From Kineococcus aurantiacus (GTDB lineage Bacteria > Actinomycetota > Actinomycetes > Actinomycetales > Kineococcaceae), in contig NZ_JACCBB010000001.1 of NCBI RefSeq assembly GCF_013409345.1, positions 1,426,001 to 1,490,000 of the forward strand: a stretch of 64,000 bases of DNA, read 5' to 3'. This document shows positions 5,005-62,263 of this stretch, piece after piece. The notes below the pieces were generated by a model. The model did no database searches. It had not been told where the DNA came from and saw only the letters and a program-made list of their open reading frames with translations. The position numbers and the translations under genes are program-made. Position 1 is the first letter of the stretch; every line of letters starts with the position of its first letter.

Positions 5005-5033
5005 AGCATGGTGCACAGATTGCCCACAGACAA
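5005..5033 (-). promoter_or_regulatory. Candidate promoter of the subtilase gene
   Basis: On the minus strand TTGTCT (5033-5028) and CATGCT (5010-5005) are separated by 17 bases, in the relatively AT-rich gap between the hydrolase stop and the subtilase start. Transcription from here would leave a leader of roughly 27 bases containing the GGAGG site. Both hexamers are only moderate matches. Confidence 0.35.
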
Positions 5034-58209: not shown

Positions 58210-59865
58210 ATGCGCCACCAGGACCGCTACCTGCAGATCAGCCGGATCCTGTCCCGGCACGGCCTGGGCTACTTCATCGACGCCCTGGGGCTCGAGCGGT
58301 GGGTGCGCACGGACTGGGACCTGTTCGGCCACCCCCGCGAACGGGAACGGCACACCCGCGCCGAGCACGTCCGGCTCGTCATGGAGGAGCTCGGCCCGAC
58401 GGCCGTCAAGATCGGGCAGATCCTCTCCACCCGCCCCGACCTGCTGTCCCCCGCGTTCCAGCGCGAGCTGGAGAAGCTCCAGGACAGCGCGAGCCCCGTG
58501 CCGTGGGAGGTCGTCCGCGCCGCCGTCGAGGAGGAGCTGGGCGCGGACCCGGAGGAGCTGTTCGTCCACTTCAGCCGCGACCCCCTGGCCAGCGCCTCGA
58601 TCGGGCAGGCCCACACCGCGGTCCGCGAGGACGGCACGCAGGTCGTCGTGAAGGTCCGCCGCCCCGGGGTCGTCGAGGAGGTGGAGGGCGACCTGGAGAT
58701 CCTGCGGACCCTCGCCGTCCAGGCCTCGCGCCGCTGGTCGGTGGCGGCCGACTACGACGTCGTCGGTCTGGCCACGGACTTCGCCGACACCCTCCGGGCC
58801 GAGCTGGACTACCTGTCCGAGGGGCACAACGCCGAGCGCTTCGCGCGCAACTTCCACGGCGACCCCGACATCCGCGTCCCCCAGGTCTACTGGGAGACGA
58901 CGACGTCGCGCGTCATCACGCTGGAGCGGTTGCACGGGATGAAGATCAGCGACACCGCAGCGCTGGAGGAGAACGGGATCGACCGGTCCGCGCTGGCCGC
59001 GCGCGCGACGCGGCTGCTGGCGGACATGGTGTTCGAGCACGGGTTCTTCCACGCCGACCCGCACCCGGGCAACTTCCTCATCGAGCCGTCGGGACGCATC
59101 GGGCTGCTGGACTACGGGATGGTCGGGGAGGTCGACGAACGCTCCCGCGAGCACCTGGCGATGCTGCTGGCGGCCTTCGACCGCCGCGACCCCGCCCGGA
59201 TCGCGGCGGCGTTCGCGACCATCGGCGTCACCGAGCACCGCGTCGACCGGGTGCGCCTGACGACCGACTGCGCGCACCTGCTGCGCACCTACGAGGGCCT
59301 GCCGCTGGGACGCATCAAGGTCGGCGACATCGTCCGGGACGTGCTGGAGATCCTGCGCCGGCACCACCTGGCCCTGCCGCGCAACCTGGCCCTCGTCGTC
59401 AAGATGATCGTCATGACGGAGGGGCTCGGCGCGAGCCTGGACCCGGACTTCCAGCTCGGGCGCATCCTCGGCCCGTACGCGCGGCGCCTCGTCCGGCGGC
59501 ACTTCGACCCGCTCGTGCTGGCCAAGCGCGTCCGGCAGGCCGGGGTCGACGTGGCCCAGCTCGGCGTCGAGCTGCCCGGCCAGCTCGGCCGGCTCCTCGA
59601 CGTCCTGGACCGCGACGGGATCTCCGTCTCGTTGCGGACCGACGAGCTGGACCCGCTGGTGGCGCGGCTGGAGCGGATCGGCAACCGCCTCGTCGTCGGC
59701 CTCGTCGTCTCCGCGGGGATCGGGGCCCTCGCCACCCTCGGTTCCACCGACCCCGAGCGGCTGAAGCCGCACGAGACGAAGGTGGTCGCGGTGGGCGGGG
59801 CGGCCCTGGCGGGCCTCACGGGTTACCTGGGCTGGACCGCCCGCGGCCACCGCCGCCGCCGCTGA
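58210..59865 (+). CDS. UbiB/ABC1 (ADCK) atypical kinase
   Basis: UbiB-family atypical kinase/ATPase (551 residues), linked in other organisms to quinone synthesis or lipid-precursor extraction. Seen: the KxGQ extension in LGPTAVKIGQILSTRPDLL, the Ala-rich nucleotide loop LASASIGQAHTAV, VVVKVRRPGV with the ATP-contact Lys, catalytic FFHADPHPGNFLI, the metal Asp in GLLDYGMVGEV, and two C-terminal hydrophobic segments (LVVGLVVSAGIGALATL and VVAVGGAALAGLTGYLG) that anchor it. ATG start with GGGGAG upstream. The stop codon is inside the terminator hairpin. Confidence 0.92.
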   Translation: MRHQDRYLQISRILSRHGLGYFIDALGLERWVRTDWDLFGHPRERERHTRAEHVRLVMEELGPTAVKIGQILSTRPDLLSPAFQRELEKLQDSASPVPWEVVRAAVEEELGADPEELFVHFSRDPLASASIGQAHTAVREDGTQVVVKVRRPGVVEEVEGDLEILRTLAVQASRRWSVAADYDVVGLATDFADTLRAELDYLSEGHNAERFARNFHGDPDIRVPQVYWETTTSRVITLERLHGMKISDTAALEENGIDRSALAARATRLLADMVFEHGFFHADPHPGNFLIEPSGRIGLLDYGMVGEVDERSREHLAMLLAAFDRRDPARIAAAFATIGVTEHRVDRVRLTTDCAHLLRTYEGLPLGRIKVGDIVRDVLEILRRHHLALPRNLALVVKMIVMTEGLGASLDPDFQLGRILGPYARRLVRRHFDPLVLAKRVRQAGVDVAQLGVELPGQLGRLLDVLDRDGISVSLRTDELDPLVARLERIGNRLVVGLVVSAGIGALATLGSTDPERLKPHETKVVAVGGAALAGLTGYLGWTARGHRRRR

Positions 59866-59901: not shown

Positions 59902-60897
59902 TCAGGAGAAGCTGGCCTGCACGACGCGGCCGCCGCCGGGGCGGGCGAACCGGGAGCGCCGCAGGTCGCGGACGACGAAGCCGCGGGTGATGAAGCGGTC
60001 GGTCCCGTCGAAGCGCGGCGCGAACGGGGACCGGCCGTGCATGGCGCGCAGGTTGTCCAGCAGCAGGACGTCGCCGGGCTGCAGGGTGACGGCGTGCCGG
60101 TGGGCGACGTAGACCTCCAGCACGCGTTCGAGCAGCGCCTGCGCGTGCTTGGTGATGCCGTGCATGAGGTCCTGGTCGACGAGCATCGTCGGGTCGTCGA
60201 CGTCGCCGGACAGGATCGGGAACGGACCGCGCACCTCGCGGGTGTCGAGGAAGTCGGCGAAGGACTCGTCGACCAGGGTCGTCCACAGCGGCCGGAACAG
60301 CTCCATGACGTCGGTGGGGTCGACGTGGGCGAGCAGGTCCAGGGCGCGGAAGGCGTAGGTCGCGGCGTCGGCGTCGCCGCGCAGGCAGCCCAGGACGACG
60401 TAGTCGGGCCGCAGGTCGGAGAAGCACTGCTCGGTGTGGGCCTCCAGCTCCACGCGCGAGCCCTGCGACTGCTGGGTCGCGGCGAGGCGGGCGTTGGGGA
60501 CCATGTCCTGCAGCAGGTGCCCGTGGCCCTCGGCGGCGTAGCCGACCATGTGCCCGAGGGCGTGGCTGACGACGGCCTGCTGGCGGGCGAGCAGGGTGCG
60601 CGCGCCGACGCCGCCGGTGTTGTCCGGCGGGGTGGCGGGCAGGTCCCCGACGTCCAGGCCGCGCAGCACGAGCACGCCGGAGTCGGAGCCGCGCTCCTCG
60701 AAGGCCCACAGGGTCTCGGCCAGGCCCTGCGGCAGCTCGCGGGCGAGCAGCCGGGCCTGGCGGCCGAAGGCCTCGGGTTCGGTCACGGGGTCGGCGGTCA
60801 CCCGTGAGCCCAGGGCGGCGAGCGCGGACCGCTCCTCCACCGCGAGCTCACGCAGGGTCGGCACCACGGCCGAGGAGTCGAGGAACACCGAGGACAC
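59902..60897 (-). CDS. Fe(II)/2-oxoglutarate L-lysine 3-hydroxylase homologue
   Basis: Clavaminate-synthase-like oxygenase (331 residues). By memory it is strikingly similar along its length to KDO1 of Catenulispora, a hydroxylase of free L-lysine at C3. Shared stretches include AEGHGHLLQDMVPNA, SRVELEAHTEQCFSDLRPDYV with iron ligands His154 and Glu156, LWTTLVDESF, FPILSGDVDDP, DQDLMHGI, LLLDNLRAMHGRSPFAPRFDGTDRF with His287 and the 2-oxoglutarate Arg, and the last residues GRVVQASFS. No signal peptide. GTG 60897 is chosen for its GGGAG site; a longer frame to 60978 runs through the promoter. Product use (antibiotic building block, catabolism) is unknown. Confidence 0.8.
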   Translation of the reverse strand: MSSVFLDSSAVVPTLRELAVEERSALAALGSRVTADPVTEPEAFGRQARLLARELPQGLAETLWAFEERGSDSGVLVLRGLDVGDLPATPPDNTGGVGARTLLARQQAVVSHALGHMVGYAAEGHGHLLQDMVPNARLAATQQSQGSRVELEAHTEQCFSDLRPDYVVLGCLRGDADAATYAFRALDLLAHVDPTDVMELFRPLWTTLVDESFADFLDTREVRGPFPILSGDVDDPTMLVDQDLMHGITKHAQALLERVLEVYVAHRHAVTLQPGDVLLLDNLRAMHGRSPFAPRFDGTDRFITRGFVVRDLRRSRFARPGGGRVVQASFS

Positions 60898-60905
60898 GAG
60901 CAGCT

Positions 60906-60961
60906 CCCATCGTCGACGCACGTCAGTGTGCGGGTCACACCGTAGCGCGTCGAACGATGGG
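60906..60961 (-). promoter_or_regulatory. Operator-rich promoter of the lysine hydroxylase gene
   Basis: A TACGGT -10 box (60944-60939, minus) would start a leader of about 35 nt. It is touched by GTGTG-N5-CACAC (60926-60940), and both lie inside a larger imperfect inverted repeat: CCCATCGTCGACG (60906-60918) and CGTCGAACGATGGG (60948-60961). Confidence 0.6.
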
Positions 60962-61000
60962 CAGTCTGCCCAGTCCACTCCTCGATGTCTAGGCAGATTG

Positions 61001-62263
61001 TCAGCGCTTGATCATGCCGTGCGGGTCGATGACGAACTTCTTGGGAGCGCCGGCGTCGAACTCGGCGTAGGCGGCCGGGGCCTCGTCCAGCGAGATCGGG
61101 GTCGCGCCGACGGCCTTCGCGATCTGCACCTTGTCGTGCAGGATCGCCATCATCAGCTGGCGGTGGTACTTCATGACCGGGCACTGGCCGGTGGTGAACG
61201 ACAGCGACTTGGCCCACCCGGTGCCCAGGTCCAGCGACAGGGAACCGCGCTTGGCCGCCTCGTCGACCCCGCCGGGGTCGCCCGTGACGTACAGGCCGGG
61301 GATGCCCAGCGCTCCACCGGCCTTGGTGAGCTGCATGAGCGAGTTCAGCACCGTCGCCGGGGCCTCCGTCGCCGAGCCGGCCCCGTGGCCGCGGGCCTCG
61401 AAACCGACGGCGTCGACGCCGGCGTCGACCTCGGGGACCCCGAGGATCTGCTCGATCTGGTCCTTCGGGTCGCCCTGCGACACGTCGACGGTCTCGCAGC
61501 CGAAGCTGCGGGCGCGCGCGAGCCGGTCGGCGTTCAGGTCGCCGACGATCACGACGGCCGCCCCGAGCAGCTGCGCACCGACCGCGGCGGCCAGGCCCAC
61601 GGGACCGGCCCCGGCGACGTACACCGTCGACCCCACGCCGACGCCGGCGGTGACCGCGCCGTGGAACCCCGTCGGGAAGATGTCCGAGAGCATCGTCAGG
61701 TCGAGGATCTTCTCCATGGCCTGGTCCTTGTCGGGGAACCTCAGGCAGTTGAAGTCCGCGTAGGGCACCAGGACGTACTCGGCCTGGCCGCCGACCCAGC
61801 CACCCATGTCGACGTACCCGTACGCCGAGCCGGGGCGGTCGGGGTTGACGTTCTCGCAGATGCCGGTCTTGCGCTCCTTGCAGTTCCGGCACCGGCCGCA
61901 GGCGATGTTGAACGGCACCGAGACGAGGTCGCCGACCTTCAGGAACTCCACGTCGCGGCCGACCTCGACGATCTCGCCGGTGATCTCGTGGCCGAGGACG
62001 AGGTTCGGCGGGGCGGTCGTGCGGCCGCGGACCATGTGCTGGTCCGAGCCGCAGATGTTCGTCGCGACGAGCTTCAGGATGACGCCGTGGTCGACCTTGC
62101 GGCCGACGTTGGCGGGGTTCACGCCCGGGCCGTCCTTGAGCTCGAAGGTCGGGTAGTCGATGGTCTGGACCTCGACCCGGCCGGGGCCGAGGTAGGCGAC
62201 GGCCCGGTTGCCGCTGGGCGTGGCGCCGTTGACGCTGAGGTCGGACGCGGTGGTGGTCGACAT
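61001..62263 (-). CDS. fdhA: Glutathione-independent formaldehyde dehydrogenase (zinc MDR)
   Basis: Zinc-dependent medium-chain dehydrogenase (420 residues) of the Pseudomonas formaldehyde dismutase/dehydrogenase type, using NAD. Seen: NRAVAYLGPGRVEVQTIDYP, catalytic zinc site ATNICGSDQHMVRGR and LGHEITGEIVEVG, structural zinc cysteines in FNIACGRCRNCKERKTGIC, the long insertion GSAYGYVDMGGWVGGQAEYVLVPYADFN, LTMLSDIFPTGFHGA, the NAD site VYVAGAGPVGLAAAVGAQLLGAAVVIVGD, and DAVGFEARGHG. The ATG at 62263 is preferred over a longer frame that would read through the palindrome at 62284. Real substrate may be another aldehyde. Confidence 0.9.
   Translation of the reverse strand: MSTTTASDLSVNGATPSGNRAVAYLGPGRVEVQTIDYPTFELKDGPGVNPANVGRKVDHGVILKLVATNICGSDQHMVRGRTTAPPNLVLGHEITGEIVEVGRDVEFLKVGDLVSVPFNIACGRCRNCKERKTGICENVNPDRPGSAYGYVDMGGWVGGQAEYVLVPYADFNCLRFPDKDQAMEKILDLTMLSDIFPTGFHGAVTAGVGVGSTVYVAGAGPVGLAAAVGAQLLGAAVVIVGDLNADRLARARSFGCETVDVSQGDPKDQIEQILGVPEVDAGVDAVGFEARGHGAGSATEAPATVLNSLMQLTKAGGALGIPGLYVTGDPGGVDEAAKRGSLSLDLGTGWAKSLSFTTGQCPVMKYHRQLMMAILHDKVQIAKAVGATPISLDEAPAAYAEFDAGAPKKFVIDPHGMIKR

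What the first reader, a model, noticed from the sequence alone, without database searches (positions are those of the whole stretch)
59902..60961. Free-lysine 3-hydroxylase homologue under an operator-rich promoter, with no biosynthetic cluster
The oxygenase keeps all iron and 2-oxoglutarate residues and resembles KDO1 nearly end to end, yet its neighbours are a UbiB kinase and formaldehyde dehydrogenase, not peptide synthetases. Its promoter is wrapped in two nested inverted repeats, so it is tightly controlled. What a Kineosporiales cell does with hydroxylysine is unexplained; stress or osmolyte roles, or formaldehyde-linked lysine chemistry with fdhA, are open ideas.
Basis: partly seen in the sequence, partly recalled or inferred. 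Interest (0 to 1): 0.6.

Follow-up and report, generated by a model that had tools for sequence, protein, structure and literature searches.

The report
Lysine 3-hydroxylase in lysine-linked regulon
This Kineococcus gene almost certainly makes an enzyme that adds a hydroxyl group to the free amino acid lysine, as already shown for a close relative, and its switch looks the same as the one in front of the cell's lysine-making genes, which gives a first testable idea of what the enzyme does in the living cell.

Summary
The gene (corrected CDS 59902-60897, minus strand) encodes a KDO1-type L-lysine 3-hydroxylase: 49% identical to KDO1, with the iron, 2-oxoglutarate and lysine-contact residues named in the KDO1 structure paper all kept. 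The enzyme is not new: the K. radiotolerans enzyme (K3H-1/KradKDO) is published as making (3S)-3-hydroxylysine. The gene is single copy, in 10 of 11 genomes of the genus, without biosynthetic partners.

New here is the control. Like boxes precede aspartokinase (lysC) in 9 of 11 genomes, a keto-acid decarboxylase in 4, peptide-transport genes in 6, and one Lrp/AsnC regulator gene in 10 of 11. I infer an Lrp-type, lysine-linked regulon in which the hydroxylase most likely drains excess lysine; regulator, effector, direction and the fate of 3-hydroxylysine are inferred. The fdhA/formaldehyde idea is not supported.

The parts
59902..60897 (-). CDS of the KDO1-type L-lysine 3-hydroxylase, 331 aa, GTG start, stop codon included
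60904..60908 (-). Shine-Dalgarno-like GGGAG, 6 nt before the GTG
   Evidence: read from the sequence; similar stretch before the start in the orthologues (by eye)
   Evidence: present in 6 of 10 orthologues
60939..60944 (-). predicted -10 (TACGGT); transcription start about 60932, not mapped
   Evidence: motif by eye; conserved in 10 orthologues as GCTACGGTG, GCTACGCTG or GCTAGCGTG
60958..60972 (.). proximal operator box TGGGCAGACTGCCCA, over the expected -35
   Evidence: perfect box; at most 3 mismatches in 10 of 10 orthologues
60990..61004 (.). distal box CTGACAATCTGCCTA (minus strand), 3 mismatches, overlapping the fdhA stop codon
   Evidence: 31-32 bp spacing in 8 of 10 orthologues at up to 4 mismatches
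61001..62263 (-). fdhA, glutathione-independent formaldehyde dehydrogenase (neighbour, not thought to be a partner)
   Evidence: TIGR02819 above cut-off
58210..59865 (+). ABC1/UbiB-family gene, convergent neighbour (not thought to be a partner)
   Evidence: PF03109

Best explanation
The gene makes an Fe(II)/2-oxoglutarate dioxygenase that turns free L-lysine into (3S)-3-hydroxy-L-lysine. It is a stand-alone gene with its own promoter. A regulator of the Lrp/AsnC family, most likely the one encoded at G000:C1:2917278 (an orthologue in each of the 11 genus genomes, with a like box before its own gene), binds two boxes three helical turns apart; the near box covers the -35, so the regulator probably represses the gene. 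The same regulator would bind upstream of the lysC-asd promoter, where activators usually sit, and before a keto-acid decarboxylase and peptide-transport genes. The simplest use is a lysine valve: with lysine scarce, synthesis is supported and the hydroxylase shut; with lysine plentiful, for instance from peptide uptake, the hydroxylase is released and drains lysine into 3-hydroxylysine. Shown here: enzyme class and active site, conserved boxes and their spacing, the same box before lysC, decarboxylase, transport and Lrp genes. From print: activity of the K. radiotolerans enzyme. Inferred: regulator family and identity, effector, direction of control, fate of 3-hydroxylysine, and the hairpin as an insulator against fdhA read-through.
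For: Enzyme; published activity of KradKDO (PMC12930750). Boxes: two-box pattern 12 forward matches in 11 genomes against 0 for the reversed control, 7 of 12 at hydroxylase promoters; single box 35 against 12, 20 of 35 at the named targets. lysC box in 9 of 11 genomes at one of two places 32 bp apart. Box before the Lrp gene in 10 of 11. Permuted-motif control: 0, 0, 4 and 3 of 500 as good for lysC, decarboxylase, Lrp and hydroxylase. Sites of 13-17 bp spaced two or three turns are typical of Lrp proteins (PMC2995911, passages). A Pseudomonas strain with its three lysine-degradation routes removed took up all lysine, made more biomass and kept no 3-hydroxylysine when given KradKDO or KrhiKDO.
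Against: No binding or expression data. Engineered E. coli with the K. radiotolerans enzyme accumulates 3-hydroxylysine to 110.5 g/L (passages of PMC12930750), so common housekeeping enzymes need not consume it. The threonine-aldolase-like gene has no box with up to 3 mismatches (0 of 11 loci). Other targets (peptide transport, decarboxylase, one acetolactate-synthase-like gene) suggest a general amino-acid regulon rather than a lysine one. G008 lacks the hydroxylase but keeps the lysC box. lysC of G006 has no box and that of G007 only a weak one; two of the nine have 4 mismatches. In an ungapped test the lysC box is not among the most conserved stretches (rank 36 of 146 and 44 of 146). FL11, a lysine-binding Lrp protein, is the closest solved relative of the candidate regulator but also of three paralogues, so it says nothing on the ligand.
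Confidence: 0.45

Rival explanations
1. 3-Hydroxylysine is a building block (siderophore amine, peptide or envelope component) of a product made by genes elsewhere; the shared box only ties it to lysine supply.
For: Family members AsnO, VioC and clavaminate synthase serve such pathways (recalled; names). Sharing the box with lysC fits co-repression by lysine as well as it fits a valve.
Against: No cluster beside the gene in the window genome; no gene family shared by more than 9 of 16 non-Kineococcus loci. The rest of the genome was not searched for peptide synthetases.
Confidence: 0.2
2. The regulon is a general feast/famine response with another effector (leucine, several amino acids or none), and 3-hydroxylysine serves stress, osmotic balance or nitrogen storage.
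For: Targets include peptide transport, a decarboxylase and one acetolactate-synthase-like gene; Lrp proteins often take several ligands.
Against: lysC is the most widespread target apart from the hydroxylase and the regulator (9 of 11). No evidence for a stress role was found or sought.
Confidence: 0.2
3. The boxes are read by a regulator of another family.
For: GC-rich palindromes are used by many families; the regulator was chosen only by the box before its gene.
Against: 15-bp sites in three-turn register at several promoters and the box before one AsnC gene in 10 of 11 genomes; of 18 other AsnC loci looked at, 6 have a box with 3-4 mismatches and the only one repeated is a different motif.
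Confidence: 0.2
4. The inverted repeat 60906-60961 is itself the operator of a repressor.
For: Arms kept in 6 of 10 orthologues with two pairs changed on both sides; it spans the -10.
Against: Absent in 4 of 10 that keep the gene and the 15-bp box; all six with it have fdhA upstream, and one arm holds the ribosome-binding site, as expected of an RNA hairpin.
Confidence: 0.12
5. The hydroxylase works with fdhA in formaldehyde-linked lysine chemistry.
For: fdhA lies directly upstream on the same strand in 8 of 10 orthologues.
Against: Not so in the other 2; own promoter and operator; in 6 of the 8 a hairpin would block translation from fdhA transcripts.
Confidence: 0.03

Closest known systems
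KradKDO / K3H-1, L-lysine 3-hydroxylase of Kineococcus radiotolerans (PMC12930750)
   Same: Same genus and enzyme; G004, whose replicon sizes fit K. radiotolerans (inferred; 4.76 Mb chromosome in the abstract of PMC2587704, seen in a listing), has a 91% identical orthologue.
   Different: No functional difference found; the published work I saw treats it as a biocatalyst.
KDO1 of Catenulispora acidiphila (PDB 6f2a, PMC6224419)
   Same: 49% identical, same Fe, 2-oxoglutarate and lysine-contact residues, closest structure.
   Different: Shorter lid (4-residue gap in the alignment); loop residues T167 and H164 replaced by Q and A, also in the G004 orthologue.
Lrp/AsnC (feast/famine) regulons, e.g. 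LysM of Sulfolobus and FL11 of Pyrococcus (review PMC2995911, passages)
   Same: Sites of about 15 bp spaced three turns, a site before the regulator's own gene, lysine-synthesis and peptide-transport targets.
   Different: A free-lysine hydroxylase among the targets; binding and ligand untested here.

Membership tests
KDO1-type L-lysine 3-hydroxylase (clavaminate-synthase-like) | 2-His-1-carboxylate iron triad | tested here: met
   H154, E156, H287; invariant in 15 aligned proteins
KDO1-type L-lysine 3-hydroxylase (clavaminate-synthase-like) | 2-oxoglutarate residues R328, R332, T204 of KDO1 | tested here: met
   R301, R305, T180
KDO1-type L-lysine 3-hydroxylase (clavaminate-synthase-like) | lysine side-chain pocket (D234, D268) and S168, S236 of KDO1 | tested here: met
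   D210, D241, S144, S212
KDO1-type L-lysine 3-hydroxylase (clavaminate-synthase-like) | fold of KDO1 | tested here: met
   Foldseek ranks 1-8 are KDO1 chains, TM 0.82-0.85 by query; model mean pLDDT 75.1, residues 133-149 below 50
KDO1-type L-lysine 3-hydroxylase (clavaminate-synthase-like) | activity on free L-lysine at C3 | not testable with these tools
   reported for the K. radiotolerans enzyme (PMC12930750)
Lrp/AsnC regulon | 13-17 bp imperfect palindromic sites | tested here: met
   15-bp TGGRCARWYTGYCCA; yardstick from PMC2995911
Lrp/AsnC regulon | sites in two- or three-turn register | tested here: met
   31-32 bp at the hydroxylase (8 of 10), decarboxylase (3 of 4 regularly) and peptide-binding protein (4 of 4)
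Lrp/AsnC regulon | regulator gene carrying the site | tested here: met
   10 of 11 genomes at up to 4 mismatches; G008 has 5
Lrp/AsnC regulon | DNA binding and amino-acid effector | not testable with these tools
   FL11 similarity shared with three paralogues
Lysine riboswitch control | riboswitch match near the hydroxylase, lysC or the Lrp gene of the window genome | tested here: not met
   at E up to 0.1 only 4 sub-threshold microRNA-family matches, all in L171
UbiB (equivalog), neighbour gene | score above the TIGR01982 cut-off | tested here: not met
   405.8 against 487.55 bits; ABC1 domain PF03109 met

The most novel reading that the evidence does not exclude
Kineococcus uses C3-hydroxylation of free lysine as a one-gene outlet for excess lysine, set against aspartokinase by a single Lrp-type regulator: the box sits over the -35 at the hydroxylase and upstream of the promoter at lysC, so disposal and synthesis are switched in opposite senses, and 3-hydroxylysine feeds a catabolic route not yet described.
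Probability: 0.3. Interest if true: 0.65.

Novelty: new member of a known kind. Interest (0 to 1): 0.42.

Why it matters
Lysine hydroxylases of this type have been mined as biocatalysts; the papers I looked into do not say what they do at home. Sharing an operator with lysC, peptide uptake and an Lrp gene yields a concrete hypothesis (lysine balance), a candidate regulator and a short stretch of DNA to test. If true, it would be a lysine outlet apart from the decarboxylase, monooxygenase and aminotransferase routes, and would explain why the gene stands alone.

Tried and rejected
Rejected: a partnership with fdhA or the UbiB-family gene (neighbours change between genomes); a lysine riboswitch; FL11 similarity as a sign of lysine sensing (three paralogues give the same top hit); threonine aldolase as a co-regulated consumer (no box with up to 3 mismatches in 11 loci). 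Lysine epsilon-aminotransferase: no genus genome passes the TIGR03251 cut-off (0 of 11), but none of the 14 control genomes does either, so this is weak. Seen but not tested as regulators: the window's MarR gene and an IclR gene near the decarboxylase in G001 and G003. A conserved partner gene outside Kineococcus was looked for; the most widespread neighbour families occur in 9 and 8 of 16 loci. One genome (L123) has a lysine/arginine/ornithine-type transporter and a TPP decarboxylase nearby, all below the curated cut-offs; the other loci do not repeat it.

Limits of the counts. One search left out L001 and L005 (hydroxylase), L141 and L142 (Lrp) because of other spacing, and L178 and L179 (lysC) because they have no clear box; its lysC result was against me (ranks 36 and 44 of 146), possibly because rows were not gapped. 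Of the 35 forward matches, 15 lie elsewhere, several inside coding sequence. For one search the motif had been drawn from the hydroxylase promoters, 2 of 11 lysC promoters and 2 of 4 decarboxylase promoters had been found by the motif scan, and orthologous promoters are not independent. Among 18 other AsnC loci, 11 show no HTH frame at the place scanned, and one (L154) was left out, so that control is rough. The covariation rests on six sequences; one of its five measures (further pair types, 5 against 5.6) is no better than shuffles. Shuffles kept single-base composition only. One search used two peptide patterns and may leave out near relatives of the window; one search sampled 394 genomes of the class and scored 5 candidates in each.

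Full report
WHAT IS THERE. The open frame 59902-60978 on the minus strand encodes a clavaminate-synthase-like Fe(II)/2-oxoglutarate dioxygenase. Its best solved relative is KDO1, L-lysine 3-hydroxylase (3e-85; next AsnO, 4.4e-34). Nine orthologues place the start at the GTG at 60897: a GTG or ATG stands there in all ten, giving 331-332 aa. Over this protein KDO1 is 49% identical (161 of 330), and the residues that the KDO1 paper names for iron, 2-oxoglutarate and lysine (PMC6224419; section 4 read whole) are kept. They are invariant in 15 aligned proteins from Kineococcus, Microbacteriaceae and relatives, and one Solirubrobacteraceae MAG. An AlphaFold2 model (mean pLDDT 75.1; residues 133-149 below 50) is closest to KDO1 chains, Foldseek ranks 1-8. 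NCBIfam gives only matches below cut-off, best GntD, clavaminate synthase and VioC.

WHERE IT OCCURS. The own genome (5.03 Mb, two contigs) has one copy; 10 of 11 genus genomes have it. The genus is Kineococcus: four contigs have the lengths of named records of K. vitellinus, K. siccus, K. rubinsiae and K. indalonis. Of 394 genomes sampled from the class, the own one included, no other exceeds 194 bits, against 671-723 within the genus. A pattern scan of named genomes gave 20 loci, 4 Kineococcus and 16 others at 51-59% identity: Salinibacterium, Rhodoglobus, Leifsonia, Microbacterium, Leucobacter, other actinobacterial records and one Solirubrobacteraceae MAG. In 14 of these 16 a tRNA-Leu gene lies divergently just upstream, but no protein family accompanies the gene in more than 9 of 16. 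It is a stand-alone gene in both groups.

THE ENZYME IS KNOWN. PMC12930750 (section 21 and passages read) states that KradKDO of K. radiotolerans, also called K3H-1 or K3H, has been shown to make (3S)-3-hydroxy-L-lysine, and tested KrhiKDO (K. rhizosphaerae) and LrubKDO (Leifsonia rubra). It also reports that a Pseudomonas strain with three lysine-degradation genes removed, given KradKDO or KrhiKDO, took up all lysine, showed more biomass and no product, and concludes that 3-hydroxylysine seems to be metabolised there. PMC12925044 (passages) used a K3H gene that it attributes to Kocuria radiotolerans.

THE OPERATOR. Before all ten orthologues lies a 15-bp palindrome, TGGGCAGACTGCCCA in the window (60958-60972), 24-26 bp before the predicted -10, with 0-3 mismatches. 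A second box lies 31-32 bp upstream of it in 8 of 10 at up to 4 mismatches; in the other two I see only a weaker one by eye. An exact two-box pattern gives 12 forward matches in 11 genomes and none for the reversed control: 7 at hydroxylase promoters, 3 (two overlapping) before a keto-acid decarboxylase, 1 before a peptide-binding protein, 1 inside a gene in G004, probably chance. Single boxes with up to 1 mismatch: 35 forward against 12 for the control; 20 lie before the hydroxylase (7), decarboxylase (4), aspartokinase (2), peptide-binding proteins (6) and an acetolactate-synthase-like gene (1, by eye). In the own genome up to 2 mismatches gives 18 forward against 9. G008, the one genome without the hydroxylase, has no box with up to 1 mismatch.

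THE REGULON. Aspartokinase was fetched from all 11 genomes; in G001 aspartate-semialdehyde dehydrogenase follows. A box lies at -78/-79 or -110/-111 from the GTG in 9 of 11, with 1-4 mismatches; the two places are 32 bp apart, in helical register. G006 has none, G007 a weak one at -81. A TAGAAT or TAGACT ends 7-8 nt before the GTG, so the transcript looks leaderless (by eye) and the box lies upstream of the promoter, where activators bind; at the hydroxylase it covers the -35. This contrast underlies the proposed opposite control and is inference. The decarboxylase (nearest TIGR03393, 461.9 bits, below its cut-off of 946) has three boxes 31-32 bp apart in G000, G005 and G003, and three at 42 and 31 bp in G001, at 1-4 mismatches. 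A peptide-binding-protein gene has two boxes 32 bp apart in G001, G003, G009 and G010; another, of dpp type, has one in G000 and G002.

THE REGULATOR. Such sites fit the Lrp/AsnC family: 13-17 bp imperfect palindromes, spaced two or three turns (PMC2995911, passages). Genus genomes have 4 to 11 AsnC-domain matches. One group has a member in each of the 11 genomes; in 10 of 11 a box with 3-4 mismatches lies at the same place, 36-50 bp before its presumed GTG in nine of them. In those nine this stretch ranks second of 136 in conservation; the hydroxylase box ranks second of 108 in eight genomes. Of 18 other AsnC loci, 6 have a box with 3-4 mismatches, at scattered places. Against 500 permuted palindromes of equal composition, 0 do as well for lysC and the decarboxylase, 4 for the Lrp gene and 3 for the hydroxylase. 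The ligand is unknown: FL11, which binds lysine, arginine and glutamine, is the closest solved relative, but also of three paralogues.

THE INVERTED REPEAT. As RNA, the 72 nt before the start plus 9 nt of the gene fold at -41.9 to -47.5 kcal/mol in six genomes (shuffle means -24.7 to -34.0) and at -29.0 to -37.8 (means -26.0 to -33.8) in four. In six aligned sequences 97.1% of cells pair, two pairs change on both sides, and slid registers pair 19.6-62.5%: modest support. One arm holds the ribosome-binding site; the other lies before the predicted transcription start. A transcript from the gene's own promoter would lack that arm; one running on from fdhA would have both and hide the site. fdhA is upstream in 8 of 10 genomes, and the six with the hairpin are among them. 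I read it as a translation insulator; a DNA-binding role is not excluded.

WHAT IT MOST LIKELY DOES. The hydroxylase shares its box with lysine supply and peptide uptake. The most economical reading is a drain for excess lysine, in line with the Pseudomonas result. Against it: E. coli with the K. radiotolerans enzyme accumulates the product to 110.5 g/L (passages), no co-regulated consumer was found, other targets are not lysine-specific, and the direction of control is unproven.

IN PRINT. Full-text searches for Kineococcus with hydroxylysine (one paper, PMC12930750), for Kineococcus with Lrp, lysine and regulon (one listing, on Streptomyces orphan proteins), for threonine aldolase with 3-hydroxylysine (none) and for 3-hydroxylysine with gene clusters (one, on cepafungin) showed no report of this regulation or of a physiological role in the listings and passages seen. 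The library lacks most subscription papers.

Noticed in passing
G000:C1:2128124-2130307 and the like places in L184-L193: A paralogous keto-acid decarboxylase lies beside a divergent AsnC gene in ten genus genomes; in some of them another palindrome, TGGTCGATCCGACCA, stands between.
   Followed up: partly
L123-L134, L137, L138: Homologues outside Kineococcus sit just downstream of a divergent tRNA-Leu gene in 14 of 16 loci, with another promoter-region inverted repeat, TTACACTC...GRGTGTAA, in some (by eye).
   Followed up: partly
lysC upstream regions in L169-L179: lysC looks leaderless in all 11 genomes (TAGAAT or TAGACT 7-8 nt before the GTG), and nine share a TGAGCACGGCC-like stretch (TGGGCACGGC or TGGACACGGCC in some) further down (by eye).
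   Followed up: no
L070 and L083 (G002, G010): A related palindrome, TGGACCGTYTGTCCA, lies near a TetR-like gene (L070) and a like sequence context in L083, probably another regulator's site (by eye).
   Followed up: no
L074 and L075 (G004:C2:4616542-4624542 and 4719896-4727896): Two places about 100 kb apart in G004 share the same sequence around a box before a small gene.
   Followed up: no
window 5012-5026: A box with one mismatch (TGCACAGATTGCCCA) lies just past the 3' end of a proline-iminopeptidase-like gene (by eye).
   Followed up: no
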